Positions 23,277-32,563 of a stretch of 64,000 nt of DNA are shown one piece after another. The notes under the pieces are model-generated. The model did no database searches and was not told where the DNA came from. It saw nothing but the letters and a program-made list of their open reading frames with translations. Source of the stretch: Actinomycetota bacterium (GTDB lineage: Bacteria > Actinomycetota > Thermoleophilia > Solirubrobacterales > Solirubrobacteraceae). A program made the translations under genes and the position numbers. Every line of letters begins with the position of its first letter. The first letter of the stretch is position 1. The stretch lies in NCBI GenBank assembly GCA_005883215.1, contig VAYS01000007.1:62001-126000 (forward strand), in the 5' to 3' direction.

Positions 23277-24332
23277 GTGCAGGCGCAGCGCGCGGCGTTC
23301 GTCACCGGTGGCTCGGGATTCATCGGCGGTCGCCTGATCCGCCGGCTGGCCGACGAAGGCTGGAGCGTCCGGGCGCTGGCTCGCTCCGAGCGCTCGGCCG
23401 AGCGGGTGCGAGAGCGTGGGGCCGAGGCCGTGCCCGGCGATCTCGACGACGTCGCCCGCCTGCGCGCCGGGGCCACCGGCTGCGAGCTCGCCTTCCACGC
23501 CGCCGCGCAGCTGGGGGAGTGGGGTGATACCCGCGAGTTCGAGCGCATCAACGTGGGCGGTACCCGCAACGCCCTGAGTGCCTGCGCCGCCGCCGGCGTG
23601 CGCCGCTTCGTCCACGTAGGGACCGAGGCGGCGTTGATGGCCGGTCAGCCGCTGATCGGCGTCGACGAGCACGCCCCGCTTCGGTTTGACTCGCCGGCGT
23701 TCTACTCGGCGACCAAGGCCCGGGCCGAGGAAGCGGTGATCACCGCGGCGGTGCCCGGGTTCGAGACGGTGGTCGTGCGTCCGCGCTTCGTGTGGGGGGC
23801 GGGCGACACCACGATCCTCCCGGCGCTCGTCGACGCGGTGCGCTCCCGGCGCTTTGCCTGGATCGGGGGCGGCCGCCATCTCACCTCCACCACCCACGTG
23901 GACAACGTGGTCGAGGGCCTGTTGCTGGGCGCCGAGCGGGGAATCACCGCCAACGCGTACTTCGTCACCGACGGAGCCCCGGTGGTCTTTCGCGACTTCG
24001 TCTGCGATCTGCTCGCCACCCAGGGAGTCGAACCGCCCACCCGGTCGGTGCCGCCCCGGTTGGCGCGCACGTTGGCGCGAGCGAGCGAGGCCGCCTGGCG
24101 CTCGCTGCCCTTGCCCGGCCAGCCGCCGATCACCCGGCTGACGTACTGGCTGATGTCGATGGAGACCACGATCGACATCACCAAGGCGCGCGAGCAGCTG
24201 GGCTACCGCCCGGTTCGGAGCATCGCCGACGGGCTCGAGGGGCTCCGGCGCGAGCGGGTTGACGCCTCCGCCGGCGGGCCCGCCGGCGGAGCAGACGGGT
24301 CCAGTCCCGGTGCTACCTTGGACCGCTCGTGA
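23277..24332 (+). CDS. NAD-dependent epimerase/dehydratase, 3-beta-HSD-like
   Basis: 351 residues from [20 protein letters not shown] is the nucleotide loop; the active-site pair is YSATK (YxxxK) near residue 142, with Ser/Thr supplied by HVGTEAAL. The later [27 protein letters not shown] matches 3-beta-hydroxysteroid dehydrogenase/isomerase-like extended SDRs. Substrate unknown (sterol-like, hopanoid or sugar). Its last codons hold a 26-bp perfect palindrome and overlap the glyA start by four bases. Confidence 0.9.
24266..24291. repeat. 26-bp perfect palindrome upstream of glyA
   Basis: Left half CTCCGCCGGCGGG (24266-24278) is followed directly by its exact reverse complement. It lies in the 3' end of the epimerase gene and ends 23 bases before the putative glyA -10 (TACCTT). 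It may be an operator or, in RNA, a very stable hairpin. Confidence 0.7.
24314..24328 (+). promoter_or_regulatory. candidate -10 box for glyA
   Basis: TACCTT (24314-24319) lies nine bases before the GTG at 24329, so the transcript would be leaderless or nearly so. No -35 match was seen. Confidence 0.4.
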
Positions 24333-25621
24333 GCACCGAGCTACCAGCCGATTACTTCGAGCGCCCTCTCGCCGAGGTCGACCCCGAGATCGCCGCCGTC
24401 CTGCGCGACGAGCTCGAGCGCCAGCAGCGCACGCTGGAGATGATCGCCTCGGAGAACTTCGTCCCCCAGGCGGTGCTCGAGTGCCAGGGCAGCGTGCTCA
24501 CCAACAAGTACGCCGAGGGCTACCCCGGCCGCCGCTACTACGGGGGCTGCGAGCACGTCGACGTCTCCGAGTCGCTGGCCATCGCTCGCGCCCAGGAGCT
24601 GTTCGGCGCCGAGCACGTCAACGTGCAACCGCACGCCGGCGCCCAGGCCAACGCCGCCGTCTTTCACGCCCTGCTCGAGCCGGGGGACAGGTTCATGGGG
24701 CTCGCCCTTGCCCACGGGGGCCATCTCACCCACGGGATGAAGAAGAACGTCTCCGGCCACTTCTACGAGGTGGTGGCCTACGGCGTCAGCGCGGATACCA
24801 GCCTGATCGACATGGACGAGGTGGCCCGGCTGGCGCGCGAGCACCAGCCGCGCATGCTGCTGGCGGGCTGGTCGGCGTATCCGCGTCACATGGACTTTGC
24901 CCGCTTCCGTGAGATTGCCGACGAGGTCGACGCGCTGCTGGTGGTGGACATGGCCCACTTCGCCGGTCTGGTCGCCGCGGACCTGCATCCCAACCCGGTG
25001 CCCTACGCCGACGTCGTCACCACCACGATCCACAAGACGCTGGGCGGGGCGCGCGGGGGGATGATCCTGTGCCGTGACGAGCACGCCAAGGCGATCGACT
25101 CGGCGGTCTTCCCCGGCGAGCAGGGGGGTCCGCTGGAGCACGTGATCGCCGGCAAGGCGGTCGCCCTGCGCATCGCCCAGAGCGAGGTCTTCCGCGAGCG
25201 TCAGGAGCGCACCGTCGCCGGCGCCCAGGCCCTCGCCGCCGAGCTGCTCGGCGCCGGAAACGGGGTCAACGTGCTCACCGGCGGCACCGACGTGCACCTC
25301 GTGCTGGTCGACCTGCGCGACTCCGAGCTCGACGGCAAGATGGCCGAGGACCGCCTGCAGGAGATCGGCATCACGGTCAACCGCAACGCGGTGCCGTTTG
25401 ACCCCCGCCCGCCTGCGGTCTCCTCCGGGCTGCGAGTCGGGGCCTCGGCACTGGCCACGCGCGGCTTGCAGGTGGACGACTTCCACGAGGTGGGGCAGGT
25501 CATCGCCGCCGCCCTGGCGCCCGACTTCGAGGCCCGCCGCGGCGAGCTCGCCGAGCGCGTCGACGCGCTCGCCGAACGCCATCCCCTCTACGAGCAGCTC
25601 GCCTCGAGCGCCGTCGTCTGA
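24329..25621 (+). CDS. glyA: serine hydroxymethyltransferase
   Basis: 430 residues from GTG. The family blocks are all there: [38 protein letters not shown] (start of the substrate site), [20 protein letters not shown] and the PLP-lysine loop [14 protein letters not shown]. It converts serine and tetrahydrofolate to glycine and methylene-tetrahydrofolate in the cytoplasm and so supplies one-carbon units; the ahcY genes at 57536-60350 belong to the same methyl metabolism. A perfect palindrome upstream may control it. The next gene starts 45 bases later. Confidence 0.98.
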
Positions 25622-25666: not shown

Positions 25667-26839
25667 ATGTCCGAGCTCGACGCGGTCTACGCCTTTCTGG
25701 TCGCCGCCGCCGTCAGCGCGCTCATCACCCCGCTGACGGCGCGACTGGCCCGGCGGGTCGGCGCCGTCGACGAGCCCCGCGACCGCGGGTTGGCGCTGCG
25801 TCCCACCCCCCTCATGGGCGGGCTGGCGATCTTCGCCGGGGCGGCGGTGGCGGGGGGCCTGTTCCTGCCCTCGGCCAGCCCCTGGCCGGGCATCCTGGTG
25901 GGCGCGGCGATCATCACCGTCACCGGCCTGGTCGACGACCTCTTCGATCTTCCGCCGGCGTGGAAGCTGGCTGGACAGAGCGCGGCGGCCCTGGTGGCGG
26001 TGCGCGCGGGGGCGGTGGTGCACGACTTCACCCTGCCCTTCGTGGGGGTCCTGCACTTCCCCCACGCCGGCGGCGCGCTCACCCTGCTCGGCCTGGTGGG
26101 GCTCATGAACGTGGTCAACTTCTCCGACGGCGTGGACGGGCTGGCGGCCGGGGTGTGCGTGATCATCGCGGCCACCCTGGCGGTGATCGCGTTTGACCTC
26201 GGTCACGGCGCGGCGGGGGTGCTGGCGGCGCTGACCGCGGGGGCGGCGGTGGGCTTTCTCTTTCACAACTTTCCCCCCGCCTCGAGCTTCATGGGCGACG
26301 CCGGGTCCAACCTGCTCGGCTTCCTGATGGGCGCCCTGACCGTGGAGGGGGCGGTCAAGACGCCGGTGGTGATCTCCTTCGTGCTTCCCCTGGTGCTGCT
26401 CGCGGTCCCGTTCCTGGACACCACCTTCGTGGTGGCCAAGCGGCTGAAGTACCGCCGGGCCATCACCCGGGCCGACACCGAGCACTTTCACCACCGCATG
26501 GCCCGCATCGGCTTTAGCCAGCGCCGCACGCTCCTGTACCTGTACACGTGGACGGTGATGCTGGCCGGACTGGCGCTGGCGCTGCGCTTCATCCCCTACT
26601 CCGACCACCACGGCCACCTGCACGCCGGGTGGTCGCTGGTGGTGCTGGCCATCGGCCTGCTGGTGGCGGCGGCCAGCGTATATCTGGTCTACGTGCTGGA
26701 GATCCTCAAGCTGGGCCGGATCACCGCCCGCACCCGCCCCGAGCTCAGCGCCGCCGAGGTCCAGGCCCAGGTCACCGAGCAGCTGGAGACGGGCGAGTTT
26801 CGCACCGTGGAGCGCCCCGCTCCTCCGCCCTCTCGCTAG
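25667..26839 (+). CDS. undecaprenyl-phosphate glycosyl-1-phosphate transferase (WecA/TagO, MraY family)
   Basis: 390 residues with about ten membrane helices. Catalytic blocks: GLVDDLFDLPP (DDxxD type), NVVNFSDGVDGLAAG, FMGDAGSNLLG and the cytoplasmic HFHHRMARIGFS. It transfers a sugar phosphate, usually GlcNAc-1-P, from UDP-sugar to undecaprenyl phosphate on the inner membrane face, the first step of secondary cell-wall polymer or arabinogalactan-like glycan synthesis. The HFHHR motif favours WecA/TagO over MraY. Its stop overlaps the stop of the convergent glycosyltransferase (CTAG). Confidence 0.94.
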   Translation: MSELDAVYAFLVAAAVSALITPLTARLARRVGAVDEPRDRGLALRPTPLMGGLAIFAGAAVAGGLFLPSASPWPGILVGAAIITVTGLVDDLFDLPPAWKLAGQSAAALVAVRAGAVVHDFTLPFVGVLHFPHAGGALTLLGLVGLMNVVNFSDGVDGLAAGVCVIIAATLAVIAFDLGHGAAGVLAALTAGAAVGFLFHNFPPASSFMGDAGSNLLGFLMGALTVEGAVKTPVVISFVLPLVLLAVPFLDTTFVVAKRLKYRRAITRADTEHFHHRMARIGFSQRRTLLYLYTWTVMLAGLALALRFIPYSDHHGHLHAGWSLVVLAIGLLVAAASVYLVYVLEILKLGRITARTRPELSAAEVQAQVTEQLETGEFRTVERPAPPPSR

Positions 26840-28200
26840 AGGACCCCGCTGGACAGGGCGGGGTCGGCGAAGGGCAGACGGGTCAGCAGCGCGTAGGCGC
26901 AGAACAGCAGGGCGGCGGTGCGCAGCGCCCGGTCGGAGCGAAGCGCGGTGAACGGCAGCAGCCAGATCGCGTACCAGGGCAACAGCCACGCCGTGCTCAG
27001 CAGCAGCGCGAGCGTCGTCCATCCGGCGGCTCGGACCCAGTCGGCCCCGGCCCAGGTGCGCCACAGCGCGAGCACCACCACCACCGCGAAGGCGACCACG
27101 AACGCGGTGCGCACTCCCGGCTCGAGCGTCGGCGCGCCCAGGAGGCGACCGACCTGCGCGGGCACGCTGTGGACGGCCACCAGCCCCTGCTGGCCGCGGA
27201 TGGCGGTCAGGAAGCCAGCCGCCTGGGAGCCAAAGCCGATCAGCGCAAGCGCCACCAGGAGCGCGGCCGAGGCCACCGCCGCCCCGAGGGCCGCGCGCGC
27301 CCGGCGACGCGCGCCCAGGAGTAGGAACGGCAGCATCAGGCCCGCGGACGCCTTGATGCCCACCCCCACTACCACCGTCACCGCGCCCGAAGCCCAGCGG
27401 CCGGTCAGGGCGAGCAGGAGCGCGGCGGCCATCAGCGCCACCAGCATGGTGTCGTTGTGTGCGCCCCCCACACCGAAGATCAGCACCACCGGGTTTAGCC
27501 CGAACAGCACGGCGGCGGCCAGGGGCGACCGTCCGACCGCGCGCGCCGCCCGCCACAGCAGGGCCACGGTGGCCAGGCTGAAGGCGGCGGCCAAGGCCTT
27601 GAGCGTCCACAGCCCTCCCACCACGCCCAGCGGCACCAGCGCGTAGCTCAGCAGCGTGAACAGGGGGCCATAGGGGGACTTGGCGTGGTGCCAGCCCAAG
27701 AAGCGAAAGACCGGGTCGTGGCCGGCGGCCAGCGAGTCGTGCGTGTAGGGGTCCAGGTGATGCACGACGCCCAGGCGGGCGTAGTCGATGTAGCCGAAGA
27801 CGTCGGAGGACAGCAGCGGCGGTCCCAGGGCGAAGATCACGTGGGCGCCCACGATCGCCGCCAGCACCCGCCGGGGACCCAGCCCGGGCAGGCAGGCCAG
27901 CGCCAGCCCGTAGCAGAGCGCCATGCCCACCACCTCGAGCTGCCAGCGGACCGTCCCGAACGGGACCCCCAGTCCGAGCAGCGGCCCGGCCAGCCAGCGC
28001 GGGAAGCGCCCGTGGGCCGAGGGCACCAGCAGGGTGGACTGGCGCGAGGCCGCGCTCGCCGCCAGCAGCAGCCCACAGGCCAACAGGCCGGCCAGCGCGC
28101 CCGTGCCCAGCGTCCCCCGCGCCAGCGTCGCCAGGCTGCGTTGGCGCCCTCGCGCTGCAACGCCCCGGCCCAGCCGGGGTATGGGAGAGGTGGCTTCCAC
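26836..28200 (-). CDS. polyprenol-phosphate-dependent membrane glycosyltransferase (GT87/mannosyltransferase-like)
   Basis: 454 residues from GTG 28200 (longer starts up to 28395 exist but run into an Arg-rich non-conserved leader). About eleven hydrophobic helices. DVFGYIDYARLGVVHHLDPYTH carries the acidic and Tyr residues expected in the first extracytoplasmic loop of GT-C enzymes, followed by FGVGGAHNDTMLVALMAAAL and LSTAWLLPWYAIWLLPF. Members use polyprenyl-phosphate-mannose or arabinose donors to extend envelope glycans. Exact linkage unknown. It is convergent with the WecA/TagO-type gene. Confidence 0.8.
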   Translation of the reverse strand: MEATSPIPRLGRGVAARGRQRSLATLARGTLGTGALAGLLACGLLLAASAASRQSTLLVPSAHGRFPRWLAGPLLGLGVPFGTVRWQLEVVGMALCYGLALACLPGLGPRRVLAAIVGAHVIFALGPPLLSSDVFGYIDYARLGVVHHLDPYTHDSLAAGHDPVFRFLGWHHAKSPYGPLFTLLSYALVPLGVVGGLWTLKALAAAFSLATVALLWRAARAVGRSPLAAAVLFGLNPVVLIFGVGGAHNDTMLVALMAAALLLALTGRWASGAVTVVVGVGIKASAGLMLPFLLLGARRRARAALGAAVASAALLVALALIGFGSQAAGFLTAIRGQQGLVAVHSVPAQVGRLLGAPTLEPGVRTAFVVAFAVVVVLALWRTWAGADWVRAAGWTTLALLLSTAWLLPWYAIWLLPFTALRSDRALRTAALLFCAYALLTRLPFADPALSSGVL

Positions 28201-28364
28201 GCGCCCATTTTCCCCATCGCGCCCGGCAATGGCTCTGCCCCGGCGGGCGCCCCTACTGGGTGACCGTGATGCTCGGTACAGTGTTCTGGCCCTGCCGGCC
28301 AGGCGCAGGCTGGCGCATGCGGTGATTCCTGGGCCCGTTTGCCCCTGACGGCCGCCCGAAGCTA

Positions 28365-30146
28365 ATGCGATTCGCTCGCCAAACGACACGCTCACCCGTG
28401 CCGGCTCGTCCGCGCCAGCGTGTGCTGATCCTGTCCGCCGACGTGGGGGAGGGTCACGCCGCGGCGGCCCGGGCGCTCGCCGAGCAGCTCCGGGAGGGCG
28501 CCGACCCCGTCGACGTGGAGGTGATCGACGGCCTCGCCGCCATGGGCCGGATCCTCCGCTACGTCGTCGAGGACGGCTACCGCACCCAGCTGCGCTTCAT
28601 CCCCTGGTCCTACGGCATCGTCTACTGGCTGCTCGAGCACTGCCTCCCGGCGCGCGCGCTGGCGGTATTCGCCCTGTGCGCGCTGGGCGGGCGACCGCTG
28701 CGCCGGCGCATCGCCGAGCACGACCCCGACGTGGTGGTCTCCACCTATCCGGCGGTCACCGTGGTCCTGGCCCGCCTGCGCCGCCGACGCGAGGTGCGCT
28801 GCCCCACGGTGGCCACGATCACCGATCTGACCGGGCTGTTCTTCTGGGCTCAGCGGGGCATCGACATGCACCTGGCCTCCTACGCCGAGTCGATCTCCTC
28901 GGTGGAGCGCATCGCCGGCCCGGACAGCGTCCGCCAGGTCCGTCCCCTGATCTCGGCCGAGTTCCTGGCGCCGTGTGACCGCAGCGAGGCCCGCCGCGCG
29001 CTCGACCTGCCCGAAGGCGGCCGCGTGGTCATCGTCTCCGGCGGCGGCTGGGGAGTGGGCGACATCGAGGGCGCGGTGCGCGAGCTGGCGCGCATCCCCG
29101 ACTCCACCGTGATCTGCCTGGCCGGCCGCAACGAGGGGGCCGAGCGCAAGCTGCGCCACGCCTTCGCCGCCGAGAAAAACGTGCGCATCCTGGGGTTCAC
29201 CGACCAGATGCCCGAGCTGCTGGCGGCGGCCGATGCGCTGGTGCACTCCACCGGCGGGGTCACCTGCCTGGAGGCCAGCGCCCGCGGGTGCCCGGTGGTC
29301 TCCTACGGCCTGCCGGTCGGCCACGCGCGCGTCAACACCAGGGCCATGGCCGAGCTCGAGCTCCTGCGCCTGGTCCACAGCCGCGACGATCTCGTCGATC
29401 AGGTTCAGGCCAGCTGCACCGAGCGACCGCCGGCGGCGGACGGCGTAAGCACCCCGCCCGCCGCCCATGTGGTGCTCTCGGCGCCCCCGCGGGTCAAGCC
29501 CATCCCCGCCTGGCAACCCCGCCTGACCCGCCTGGCGGCGCAGGCGATGGTGGTGCTTGGCGCCAGCACCTGGCTGATGTCCACCGACGAGCTGACGGCG
29601 TTTGCCGCCGGCTTCCTCGGCGAGCACCCGATCCACAGCCTGCACACCAACACCCGCCAGGTGGCGGTGATCGTGCGCGCCCGTCCCGACCAGCTGCCCA
29701 CGCTGTCGGCGCGACTCGCCGGCGCGGGCGAGCGGGTCACGTTCGCGGTCAGCTCGGTGCCCGACCGGGCCACACTGGAAACGCTGCGCGCCGAGGGCGA
29801 CGACGCCATGCCCGAGCCCAAGCGCGGAGCGCTGCTGGGCTGGGTGGGCACGCGCTCGCGGCTGCACTCCGAGGCCCGCGCCATGAGCCTGCCCCACCAC
29901 TTCTACTTCCTCGCTCCCCGCACCATGTCGCTCGGACAGCTGGTGCTGGCCAAGACCATCCGCTCGGCGCGGCCGGTGGTGGGCTCGCTGAGCCTCGACC
30001 GCCACTCGCCCACCCCGTCGCGCCCCCTGCGGGCCGGCGACGTGGTCGTCGTCACCTACGACGGCTCGAGCGCCTCGCTCGACGGCCTGACCGCGGCCTT
30101 GCGCTCGGACGGGCTGCGCGCGGCGCCGCTGTCGGCGTTGGCCTGA
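28365..30146 (+). CDS. MGDG-synthase-like glycosyltransferase fused to a degenerate NodB-like domain
   Basis: 593 residues. Residues 18-350 match the monogalactosyldiacylglycerol synthase/GT28 family: [48 protein letters not shown], then the donor domain [17 protein letters not shown] and [23 protein letters not shown]. From about residue 400, [32 protein letters not shown] and [21 protein letters not shown] align by pattern with the polysaccharide deacetylase encoded at 31002, but the TFDDGP, HxxxH and RPPYG motifs are absent. It probably glycosylates a lipid acceptor at the membrane, with a non-catalytic binding or structural tail. The last 91 bases overlap the convergent transporter gene. 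Confidence 0.85.
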
Positions 30147-31003
30147 TCGCCCCCCGCGGTCAGGGCCAGCAGCAGCGGGGAGCGGGCCAGGAAGGCGGCC
30201 CCGAGGGCGAGGATCAGCAGCGACGCCAGCAGCGGCACGCCGTGCAGCGGGGTCCGGGAGAAGTGCTCGTGCACCAGCAACGGGGCCAGCGCCACCGGCA
30301 CCAGCGTCTGGACCACGAACACCACGGGAGCGACCTGGATCGCCGGGCGGGTCTGCAGCGCGCTCATCTCGCTCAGCAGCGCCACCCCCTCGGTGGCCGT
30401 CGAGGCGACCCCCCAGGCGACGGCCCGCAGCCAGTGTCCGCGCGCCACCTCGTCGGCGACCAGCTTGGTGGCCACCCCACCCCAGGCGAAGCCCAGGCCG
30501 GCGGAGACCATGGTCAGCGTCCCCCAGGTCCGTCCGAACAGGCGCATTAGGTAGGGCGCAAACGCCACCAGCCACAGGAGCCCCAGCGCCACCGGGAAGA
30601 TCGCGCCGTGGGCGTGGGTGGTCGTGCGCTCGGGCGCGGTCCAGGCCAGGCCGGCGACGCCCACCACGATCGCCGCCATCGCCAGCTTCTCCGAGCGCCC
30701 GGCGTGCTCGCCCAGGATGCGGTGCCCCAGGGCCAACAGCACCAACAGACCCGCGGCCAGCGCCGGCTGGACCACCACTAGCGGGGCCAACAGCAGCGCC
30801 GCCACCTGAAACGGCCAGCCGAAGGTGGACAGCGCGGTGGCCGCCAGCCAGCGCCCGCGGCTCACCAGCTGGCGAAACAGGGAAAGGCGCAGGGCGTGGC
30901 CGGCGTGGACCTGCCTAGCCTCCAGCGCCTGCAGGGCCACGCCTACGCTGTATAGGGACGAGGCCACCACGGCCGCGCCGATTCCGAGTAGCAAGCTGAC
31001 CAT
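30056..31003 (-). CDS. multi-pass membrane protein, DMT/EamA-like transporter
   Basis: 315 residues from ATG 31003. Nine or ten hydrophobic helices, starting [29 protein letters not shown] and with [23 protein letters not shown] and [21 protein letters not shown], patterns of the drug/metabolite transporter fold. The cargo is unknown. The C-terminal 33 residues are hydrophilic and encoded antisense to the end of the upstream glycosyltransferase. Its start codon shares the tetranucleotide CATG with the divergent deacetylase gene, so the two promoters must lie within each other's coding sequence. Confidence 0.8.
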
Positions 31004-31736
31004 GACGCGCTCCGATGATGCCAGCCGCGCGCCTACGGCAGGAGCCGGCCGCTGGCTGGCGCCGCTCGCGCTGGGCGCCGGCGCGGCCTGGGCGCTGCCG
31101 GCCGCCGCGGCCGCCTGGGCGCCGCTGCGGGCCCCCCTGGGGATCGCCGATCGCACCGGCGACGGCCTCGGCGTGGGGCTGACCTTCGACGATGGACCCC
31201 ACCCGCAGGGCACGCCGGCGGTGCTCGAGCTGCTGGCCCAGGCGGGCGTGCGGGCCACCTTCTTCCTGGTCGGCGAGCAGATCCAGCGCACCGGCGCGCT
31301 CGCGCACGAGATCGTGGCCGGCGGTCACGACGTGGCGCTGCACTGCCACCGCCACCGCAACCTCCTGCGGCTCACCCCGCGACAGGTGCGCGCGGATCTC
31401 GAGCGCGCCCGGGCGCTGATCTCGCAGGCCACCGGACGCGAGCCCAGCCTGTACCGGCCGCCCTACGGCATCTTCTCCTTCCCCGCGCTGCGCTGGGCGC
31501 GCGAGCAGGGCATGCTGCCGCTGCTGTGGACGCACTGGGGGCGCGACTGGGAGCGCGCCGCCAGCACCGAGTCGATAACGCGGCTGCTGTGCGCCGACCT
31601 AGAGCCGGGCAGCGTGGTGCTGCTCCACGACGCCGACGACTACGGCGCGCCCGGGTCCTGGCGCCGCACCGTAGCGGCGCTACCCAGCGTGCTGGCCGAG
31701 CTCGAGCGCCTTCAGCTGCGGCCGGGCCCGGTCTGA
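31002..31736 (+). CDS. polysaccharide deacetylase (NodB/CE4)
   Basis: 244 residues. A hydrophobic N-terminal segment (about residues 15-40) indicates a signal anchor, so the catalytic domain is outside. CE4 motifs are complete: TFDDGPHP (motif 1, base and metal Asp), HCHRHRN (motif 2, HxxxH metal ligands), RPPYG (motif 3) and VVLLHDAD (motif 5). It removes acetyl groups from GlcNAc or other amino sugars in wall or capsule glycan. It is the active counterpart of the degenerate domain fused to the glycosyltransferase at 28365. It ends in a 25-base convergent overlap with the PAP2 gene. Confidence 0.92.
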   Translation: MTRSDDASRAPTAGAGRWLAPLALGAGAAWALPAAAAAWAPLRAPLGIADRTGDGLGVGLTFDDGPHPQGTPAVLELLAQAGVRATFFLVGEQIQRTGALAHEIVAGGHDVALHCHRHRNLLRLTPRQVRADLERARALISQATGREPSLYRPPYGIFSFPALRWAREQGMLPLLWTHWGRDWERAASTESITRLLCADLEPGSVVLLHDADDYGAPGSWRRTVAALPSVLAELERLQLRPGPV

Positions 31737-32563
31737 CCGGCGCCCGCGGCCGCCATCGCCGGCGCGGAGGATCCCACGCGCCGGCGCCCGACCGGCGCCC
31801 ACGCCCAGGCGGCGGGCCGCACGCGGGCCATCACCTGCTTGGCGGCCAGGAACGCCACCGCGGCCGTCACTGCCCCGGTGAGGGCGTCGAACACGAAGTG
31901 GTTGGCGGTGACCACGATCACCCCGAGCACCAGGGCGGGGTAGACCAGCCAGACCAGCTTCAGCCACCGGCGTCGGGTGAGCACCACCGCGGTGATCCCG
32001 ATCAACAGGGCAAAGCACATGTGCATGCTCGGGACGGCGGCGTAGGGGTTGACGAACAAGCTCACCGCCCCCGAGTCCTGGTTGATGTGGGCGATCTGAT
32101 GGATGGTGTCGACGAAGCCCAGCTGGGGCAGCATTCGGGGCGGCGCCACCGGCACGATCAGGTGCACCACCAGGGCCATGCCCATGGCCACGAAGAACAT
32201 GTTGCGCACGAAGTAGAAGATCTGGTTGCGGTAGATGTAGAGGAAGGCCAGGAACAGGGCGTTGACCGTGAACTGGATGTTCACGTAGAGCCAGTTGGAG
32301 GCCACGACCAGGTCGTGGTTGCCGAGCACCAGCCGCTGGAGCTGGGGCTCGAAGAACAGCCCGGTCGCGCGCTCGAACGCCACCACCGCGTGGGCGTTGG
32401 CCAGCGCCGCGTCGCCCCGGCCGGCCACCAGGCCGCGCACCCCCTCATAGAGCAGATCGGCCAAGCCCCACAGGGCCACCTGCAGGACGGCATCGCGCCA
32501 TCCCCGCGGGAGGGCGAGCGACAGGCGGGCGCGCAGGCGAAGGAGCAGAGGGCGGGAGGTCAC
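31712..32563 (-). CDS. PAP2-superfamily membrane phosphatase/transferase
   Basis: 283 residues, about six helices. The active-site blocks are AVPSMHMCFALLIGITAV (PSxH) and VTANHFVFDALTGAV (HxxxD), with the upstream Arg/Pro motif in VAPPRMLPQLGF. This arrangement matches the PAP2 branch that includes inositolphosphorylceramide synthase-like proteins. It would act on a lipid phosphate or transfer a phospho-head-group at the outer membrane face, consistent with the neighbouring lipid/glycan genes. Substrate unknown. Its 3' end overlaps the deacetylase by 25 bases. Confidence 0.87.
   Translation of the reverse strand: MTSRPLLLRLRARLSLALPRGWRDAVLQVALWGLADLLYEGVRGLVAGRGDAALANAHAVVAFERATGLFFEPQLQRLVLGNHDLVVASNWLYVNIQFTVNALFLAFLYIYRNQIFYFVRNMFFVAMGMALVVHLIVPVAPPRMLPQLGFVDTIHQIAHINQDSGAVSLFVNPYAAVPSMHMCFALLIGITAVVLTRRRWLKLVWLVYPALVLGVIVVTANHFVFDALTGAVTAAVAFLAAKQVMARVRPAAWAWAPVGRRRVGSSAPAMAAAGAGQTGPGRS

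What the first reader, a model, noticed from the sequence alone, without database searches (positions are those of the whole stretch)
28365..30146. Glycosyltransferase fused to a motif-less NodB-like domain, next to an active NodB
The last 190 residues follow the strand pattern of the deacetylase encoded 860 bases downstream but lack TFDDGP, HxxxH and RPPYG. Fusion of an MGDG-synthase-like enzyme to a pseudo-deacetylase suggests a carbohydrate-binding or scaffold module that brings the acceptor or the true deacetylase to the transferase.
Basis: inference. Interest (0 to 1): 0.6.

Follow-up and report, generated by a model that had tools for sequence, protein, structure and literature searches.

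The report
Membrane-tethered dead deacetylase on glycosyltransferase
A bacterial enzyme that probably adds sugars to membrane lipids carries, across a membrane-spanning helix, a catalytically dead copy of a deacetylase; the same dead domain recurs in many soil bacteria, usually next to a working deacetylase, which suggests a conserved helper role rather than an error or a decaying gene.

Summary
Confirmed and refined. ORF 28365-30146 (593 aa) is an MGDG-synthase-like glycosyltransferase (residues 1 to ~372), one predicted transmembrane helix (~385-406) and a C-terminal domain (CTD) with a NodB/CE4 fold but no catalytic motif. Fold evidence: a confident AlphaFold model (pLDDT 90) whose 30 best PDB matches are all CE4; profile-profile scores of 45.8 and 35.0 against at most 19.7 in 49 controls; bridging sequences from another class hit by a NodB profile at E~1e-9. 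Pfam misses the domain. It occurs in 62 of 399 sampled genomes of the class, as GT-TM-CTD, SDR-GT-TM-CTD or SDR-TM-CTD. An intact NodB lies nearby in 41 of 45 CTD loci with enough context, but also in 15 of 18 loci without the CTD, so the deacetylase belongs to the cassette, not to the fusion. Best reading: an aminoglycolipid pathway working like HexSDF, with the pseudo-deacetylase coupling inner and outer steps. Fold, loss of motifs, conservation and linkage are shown; topology is predicted; pathway and coupling role are inferred.

The parts
28365..29480 (+). Glycosyltransferase domain, MGDG-synthase / GT28-like, residues 1-372 (predicted cytoplasmic)
   Evidence: PF06925 57.5 bits (cut-off 25), PF13692 and PF00534 above cut-off; PDB relatives 9wde E 3e-19 and 4wyi E 7e-15; conserved GxGH, GGG, GGxTxLEA motifs
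29523..29579 (+). Predicted single transmembrane helix, residues ~387-405, in-to-out
   Evidence: Hydropathy mean 1.64 over 73 homologues (this one 1.22); K/R before exceed K/R after in 72 of 73; helix 385-406 in the model
29658..30143 (+). Pseudo-NodB (dead CE4 fold) domain, residues ~432-593 (predicted extracytoplasmic)
   Evidence: AlphaFold pLDDT 90.4; Foldseek ranks 1-30 all CE4; hhalign with controls; motifs absent
31002..31736 (+). Intact NodB/CE4 deacetylase, 244 aa, with an N-terminal hydrophobic segment
   Evidence: PF01522 108.8 bits; TFDDGP, HCHRH, RPPYG present; PDB CE4 relatives down to E 3.5e-29
30056..31003 (-). Polytopic membrane protein of unassigned family; candidate lipid transporter/flippase
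   Evidence: All-helical model, pLDDT 90.6; no Pfam or NCBIfam hit above threshold and no PDB fold match; linked to the cassette in 24 of 45 CTD and 12 of 18 non-CTD loci
26836..28395 (-). GT87 family polytopic mannosyltransferase-like protein, divergent neighbour (true start probably downstream of the GTG used here)
   Evidence: PF09594 37.2 bits, cut-off 25; near the fusion in 20 of 45 CTD loci
31712..32563 (-). PAP2_3 family membrane protein, neighbour of NodB
   Evidence: PF14378 120.8 bits; near the fusion in 16 of 45 CTD loci

Best explanation
The protein is a membrane-anchored fusion: a cytoplasmic MGDG-synthase-like glycosyltransferase, one inside-to-outside transmembrane helix, and an extracytoplasmic, catalytically dead CE4 (NodB-fold) domain. 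Its cassette (sugar SDR enzyme in many relatives, GT, polytopic membrane protein, intact NodB) most likely makes an amino-sugar membrane glycolipid in the way HexSDF does: the GT adds an N-acetylhexosamine to a lipid inside, the lipid is flipped, and the intact NodB removes the acetyl group outside. The pseudo-NodB, held outside by the helix, most likely binds the flipped glycolipid or the intact NodB and so couples the inner and outer steps. Shown: domain composition, CE4 fold, loss of motifs, conservation, purifying selection, genomic linkage. Predicted: topology. Inferred: pathway, flipping, product and coupling role. Confidence by step: dead CE4 fold 0.95; outside location 0.8; aminoglycolipid pathway 0.5; coupling or docking role given all that 0.5-0.6. 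The figure below is for the whole statement.
For: CE4 fold and homology with controls, with bridging sequences in another class. Motifs absent. Helix with charge asymmetry in 72 of 73. dN/dS below 1 in every one of the 30 closest pairs listed. Linkage to an intact NodB in 41 of 45 loci, on the same strand in 49 of 53, overlapping or abutting in L199, L230, L244 and L245. Fusion with a sugar epimerase-type SDR in 24 loci and SDR-CTD without GT in 4, which fits a pathway-level module. HexSDF precedent: MGDG-synthase-like HexS plus polysaccharide deacetylase HexD plus flippase-like HexF, with the N-acetyl lipid accumulating without HexD (PMC10128005); GpgSDF precedent (PMC12713373).
Against: No lipid product, activity, interaction or localisation is known. 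The putative flippase has no recognised family or fold. Cassettes without the CTD exist (18 with context), so the CTD is dispensable for the cassette in those lineages. The CTD evolves about twice as fast as the GT. The mirror-tree test does not favour CTD-NodB contact over shared history. The window's own helix is only weakly hydrophobic (1.22). Donor and acceptor of the GT are not known.
Confidence: 0.35

Rival explanations
1. The helix is what matters: the C-terminal extension anchors the GT (or SDR) to the membrane, and the pseudo-NodB is a passenger left from an ancestral fusion with an active deacetylase, with little function of its own.
For: A clade of SDR-GT proteins keeps the helix followed by a short tail and has no CTD, so the anchor can exist alone. 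The CTD evolves about twice as fast as the GT. Other GTs lack helix and CTD altogether.
Against: Fold, length and a set of positions are conserved in 60 divergent copies and purifying selection persists. The helix plus CTD stays whole when moved to the SDR. The dead domain is found in two classes, which is long for a passenger.
Confidence: 0.3
2. The pseudo-NodB is a carbohydrate-binding (lectin-like) module that recognises peptidoglycan or an envelope polysaccharide outside and thereby localises the synthase, without any contact with the neighbouring deacetylase.
For: The CE4 fold is a sugar-binding scaffold by ancestry; conserved W493, T496, R497 and Q525 could form a site; linkage to NodB is no stronger with the CTD than without it.
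Against: No conserved aromatic platform beyond W493 was identified; no ligand evidence of any kind.
Confidence: 0.25
3. The CTD is an enzyme with a new active site built on the CE4 fold.
For: The fold is retained, and conserved polar residues outside the CE4 motifs exist (T428, T496, R497, Q525).
Against: Only P483 and G558 are invariant, which does not look like a catalytic set; evolution is fast for an enzyme.
Confidence: 0.07

Closest known systems
HexSDF of Clostridioides difficile (PMC10128005)
   Same: An MGDG-synthase-like glycosyltransferase gene next to a polysaccharide deacetylase gene and a membrane protein gene; there the GT adds N-acetylhexose to a glycolipid and the deacetylase converts it to the amino form.
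   Different: HexF is MprF-like; the membrane protein here has no recognised family or fold. No transmembrane pseudo-deacetylase extension is reported on HexS. HexS itself was not available for direct comparison.
GpgSDF of Pseudomonas aeruginosa (PMC12713373)
   Same: The same logic of glycosyltransferase, deacetylase and predicted flippase for an amino-sugar lipid (GlcN-PG).
   Different: GpgS is a GT4-type enzyme and GpgD a COG3233 deacetylase, both predicted cytoplasmic; the NCBIfam model GlcN_PG_synth hits the window's GT only at 14.8 bits against a cut-off of 480.
CE4 pseudoenzymes: BA3943 (7bkf), BA0150 (4m1b), Encephalitozoon cuniculi CDA (2vyo)
   Same: CE4 fold with lost catalytic or metal residues; these are among the six best fold matches of the CTD (inactivity of 4m1b and 2vyo discussed in PMC10967932; BA3943 is called a pseudoenzyme in its PDB titles).
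   Different: Those are not described as fused to a glycosyltransferase or epimerase through a transmembrane helix; the CTD has lost all motifs and is only 13-16% identical to them.
MGDG synthase / UgtP (diglucosyl diacylglycerol synthase) family
   Same: The GT domain matches PF06925 above cut-off, PRK13609 at E 6e-30, and 9wde and 4wyi in the PDB.
   Different: Far below the NCBIfam equivalog cut-off (104 against 500 bits); carries the transmembrane and pseudo-NodB extension.

Membership tests
CE4 / NodB fold superfamily (CTD) | NodB (distorted beta/alpha barrel) fold | tested here: met
   AlphaFold pLDDT 90.4; top 30 PDB matches all CE4, TM about 0.6
CE4 / NodB fold superfamily (CTD) | Sequence homology along the NodB domain | tested here: met
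   hhalign 45.8 and 35.0 against at most 19.7 in controls; NodB profile hits the CTD of L245 and L244 at E 1.6e-9 and 4e-9
Active CE4 deacetylase (CTD) | MT1 TFDD catalytic/metal Asp | tested here: not met
   IVRARP at the aligned place; TFDD in 0 of 62 homologues
Active CE4 deacetylase (CTD) | MT2 metal-binding HxxxH | tested here: not met
   The stretch falls in a gap of the profile alignment; incidental HxxxH strings in 13 of 62 homologues were not mapped individually
Active CE4 deacetylase (CTD) | MT3 RPPYG and MT5 catalytic His (LMHD) | tested here: not met
   LAPRT and VTYD at the aligned places; RPP[YF] in 0 of 62
Active CE4 deacetylase (stand-alone 31002-31736) | All CE4 motifs present | tested here: met
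   TFDDGP, HCHRH, RPPYG, LLHD; conserved in all or nearly all of 78 cassette NodBs
MGDG synthase-like GT (GT domain) | PF06925 MGDG_synth above the curated cut-off | tested here: met
   57.5 bits, cut-off 25
MGDG synthase-like GT (GT domain) | Transfers a hexose to diacylglycerol | not testable with these tools
   Needs a biochemical assay or lipidomics
HexSDF-type aminoglycolipid system | MGDG-synthase-like GT linked to a polysaccharide deacetylase | tested here: met
   Intact NodB near the GT in 56 of 63 loci with context
HexSDF-type aminoglycolipid system | MprF-like flippase protein | tested here: not met
   The linked membrane protein has no Pfam or NCBIfam assignment and no PDB fold match; I therefore do not file the cassette as HexSDF, only as working like it
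HexSDF-type aminoglycolipid system | Product is a hexosamine-bearing glycolipid whose formation needs the deacetylase | not testable with these tools
   Needs lipidomics of wild type and gene deletions

The most novel reading that the evidence does not exclude
A transmembrane metabolon: a dead deacetylase domain, held outside the cell by the glycosyltransferase or epimerase that works inside, is a docking subunit for the intact deacetylase or its lipid substrate, so that sugar activation, transfer, flipping and deacetylation are coupled across the membrane. This would be a new use of a CE4 pseudoenzyme.
Probability: 0.3. Interest if true: 0.68.

Novelty: new variant of a known kind. Interest (0 to 1): 0.5.

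Why it matters
It defines a conserved pseudo-CE4 domain family that Pfam does not detect, ties it to a compact envelope-lipid cassette in a poorly studied soil lineage (Thermoleophilia/Solirubrobacterales), and gives a testable case of a pseudoenzyme that moves between enzymes of one pathway (GT or epimerase) while keeping its transmembrane helix. Two Conexibacter chromosomes (S30A1 and DBS9H8) carry the triple fusion, so work in culture may be possible.

Tried and rejected
Chance resemblance: rejected by controls. Different fold: rejected. Assembly or frameshift artefact: rejected, since the fusion recurs as one open frame in dozens of genomes, including records titled complete chromosomes. 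Recent duplicate of the neighbouring NodB: not supported, since the CTD profile scores higher against diverse CE4 (45.8) than against the cassette NodBs (35.0), though the two profiles differ in diversity. Fusion as the cause of the linkage to NodB: rejected, as GTs without CTD are linked too. Mirror-tree test for CTD-NodB contact: inconclusive, partial correlation 0.40 against 0.38 for GT-NodB. Calling the middle gene a DMT transporter was my working label only; Pfam is below threshold and the fold search found nothing, so I withdraw it. A genome-contig search with the CTD alignment failed because no stretch was conserved enough; the GT alignment was used instead. PDB sequence search with the CTD profile gave only insignificant hits, among them the CE4s 4m1b (E 0.43) and 7ax7 (E 0.47). 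Literature: no paper describing this fusion was found in the library searched, and no lipid data for the lineage. Number of CTD gains or losses: 5 changes on a quick GT tree, at least 3 forced by starred branches; the direction is not determined, and one apparent absence (L169) is a contig end.

Full report
What is there. ORF 28365-30146 (+) encodes 593 aa. Residues 31-178 match MGDG_synth (57.5 bits, cut-off 25), residues ~206-322 match GT-B donor-domain families, and the last 228 aa match no Pfam family. The closest solved relatives are a processive diacylglycerol beta-glucosyltransferase (9wde, E 3e-19) and plant MGD1 (4wyi, E 7e-15). NodB (31002-31736) starts 856 bases downstream and has the CE4 motifs. 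Between them, on the other strand, lies a polytopic membrane protein.

The C-terminal domain (CTD) is a CE4 fold. Homologues were collected from related genomes. An alignment of 60 CTDs (A2) gave an AlphaFold2 model with pLDDT 90.4 and pTM 0.82. Foldseek against the PDB returned CE4 proteins in all of the first 30 ranks, led by 2vyo (E 8e-8) and the BA3943 pseudoenzyme (E 2e-7), TM about 0.6 for the best, at 8-18% identity. hhalign of A2 with 21 diverse CE4s scored 45.8 (probability 88%) and with 31 cassette NodBs 35.0 (probability 48%). Forty shuffled, two reversed and seven unrelated-family controls reached at most 19.7. Two genomes of another class of the phylum carry GT-CTD proteins (L244, L245) whose CTD is hit directly by the cassette NodB profile (E 4e-9 and 1.6e-9). 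They keep A(T/S)FFLP and YYLPxxG at the expected places but have no HxxxH and no RPPYG there. They bridge the CTD and ordinary NodB by sequence.

It is catalytically dead by motif. TFDDGP aligns with IVRARP, the HxxxH stretch falls in a gap next to the invariant P483, RPPYG aligns with LAPRT, and LMHD aligns with VTYD. TFDD and RPP[YF] occur in none of 62 members, and PF01522 is not among the families hit by any of 60 members. The invariant residues are P483 and G558; conserved polar positions are T428, T496, R497 and Q525. It is not a decaying pseudogene: in the 30 closest pairs the CTD dN/dS is 0.06-0.67, and the median over 315 pairs is 0.42 against 0.22 for the GT (a simple Nei-Gojobori estimate on GC-rich DNA, so approximate, and pairs share history).

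A transmembrane helix separates the two domains. In 73 homologues the segment before the CTD has a mean peak hydropathy of 1.64 (window 19; 42 at 1.6 or more), and K/R are more frequent before than after it in 72 of 73. The window's own helix is weaker (1.22). The predicted arrangement is transferase inside, pseudo-NodB outside.

Distribution and architecture. The CTD is in 62 of 399 sampled genomes of the class, almost always once; the window's genome has one CTD and 12 PF01522 matches. Outside the class, in a sample of the phylum, two genomes had full-length matches. Three architectures occur: GT-CTD (41 non-redundant loci), SDR-GT-CTD (24) and SDR-CTD without GT (4). In G049, an SDR-CTD genome, the GT lies on another contig, without the extension, next to NodB. 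A further clade of SDR-GT proteins keeps a helix and a short tail but no CTD. The SDR part is an Epimerase-family domain. A GT search of named genomes returned almost only Solirubrobacterales/Thermoleophilia or unresolved Actinomycetota records, including Conexibacter sp. S30A1 and DBS9H8.

Linkage. Of 45 CTD loci with at least 2 kb on both sides, 41 have an intact NodB, 24 the polytopic protein and 20 GT87. Of 18 loci without the CTD, 15 have NodB and 12 the polytopic protein. NodB is on the same strand as the fusion in 49 of 53, and overlaps or abuts it in several (L199, L230, L244, L245). All 78 cassette NodBs keep TFDDGP, HxxxH and an RPPYG-like motif. So the deacetylase belongs to the cassette, and the CTD is an optional addition to it.

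How it most likely works. The nearest described systems are HexSDF in C. difficile (MGDG-synthase-like HexS, polysaccharide deacetylase HexD, MprF-like HexF; needed for aminohexosyl-hexosyldiradylglycerol, with the N-acetyl form accumulating without HexD; PMC10128005) and GpgSDF in P. aeruginosa (PMC12713373). By analogy the cassette here makes an amino-glycolipid: the SDR supplies the sugar nucleotide, the GT adds the sugar inside, the lipid is flipped, and NodB deacetylates it outside. The pseudo-NodB is then best explained as an outside docking or substrate-holding subunit that ties the inner enzyme to the outer step. The finding of helix plus CTD on the SDR when the GT lacks it fits a pathway-level role rather than a GT-specific one. 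None of this last part has been tested, and the putative flippase is unassigned. The main rivals are a plain membrane anchor with a passenger domain and a lectin-like binding module.

Novelty. CE4 pseudoenzymes are known (PMC10967932), and GT-deacetylase-flippase cassettes are known. A conserved dead CE4 domain joined through a transmembrane helix to a lipid glycosyltransferase or epimerase was not found in the papers searched, a limited library. I rate it a new variant of a known kind.

Noticed in passing
window 31001-31004: The start codons of NodB (+, ATG 31002-31004) and of the divergent membrane protein (-, ATG 31003-31001) overlap, so there is no intergenic space as called; one start may be wrong or the transcripts leaderless.
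   Followed up: no
window 30056-31003 (-): Polytopic membrane protein conserved across the cassette with a confident model but no Pfam, NCBIfam or PDB fold assignment; it overlaps the 3' end of the fusion gene convergently by about 90 bases.
   Followed up: partly
window 24329-25621 (+): Serine hydroxymethyltransferase (glyA) lies near the cassette here and in several relatives (L131, L144, L146); glyA is also the neighbour of hexS in C. difficile (PMC10128005). Possibly coincidence.
   Followed up: no
L163 (CAJCHW010000003.1): A record titled Chlamydiae bacterium carries the same cassette and falls inside the Solirubrobacterales GT clade; mis-binning or transfer.
   Followed up: no
L181, L183, L205, L212 and 20 other loci: Triple fusion of epimerase-type SDR, glycosyltransferase and transmembrane pseudo-NodB in one open frame of about 900-1200 codons.
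   Followed up: partly
L099, L100, L128, L136: SDR epimerase fused directly to the helix plus pseudo-NodB with no glycosyltransferase.
   Followed up: partly
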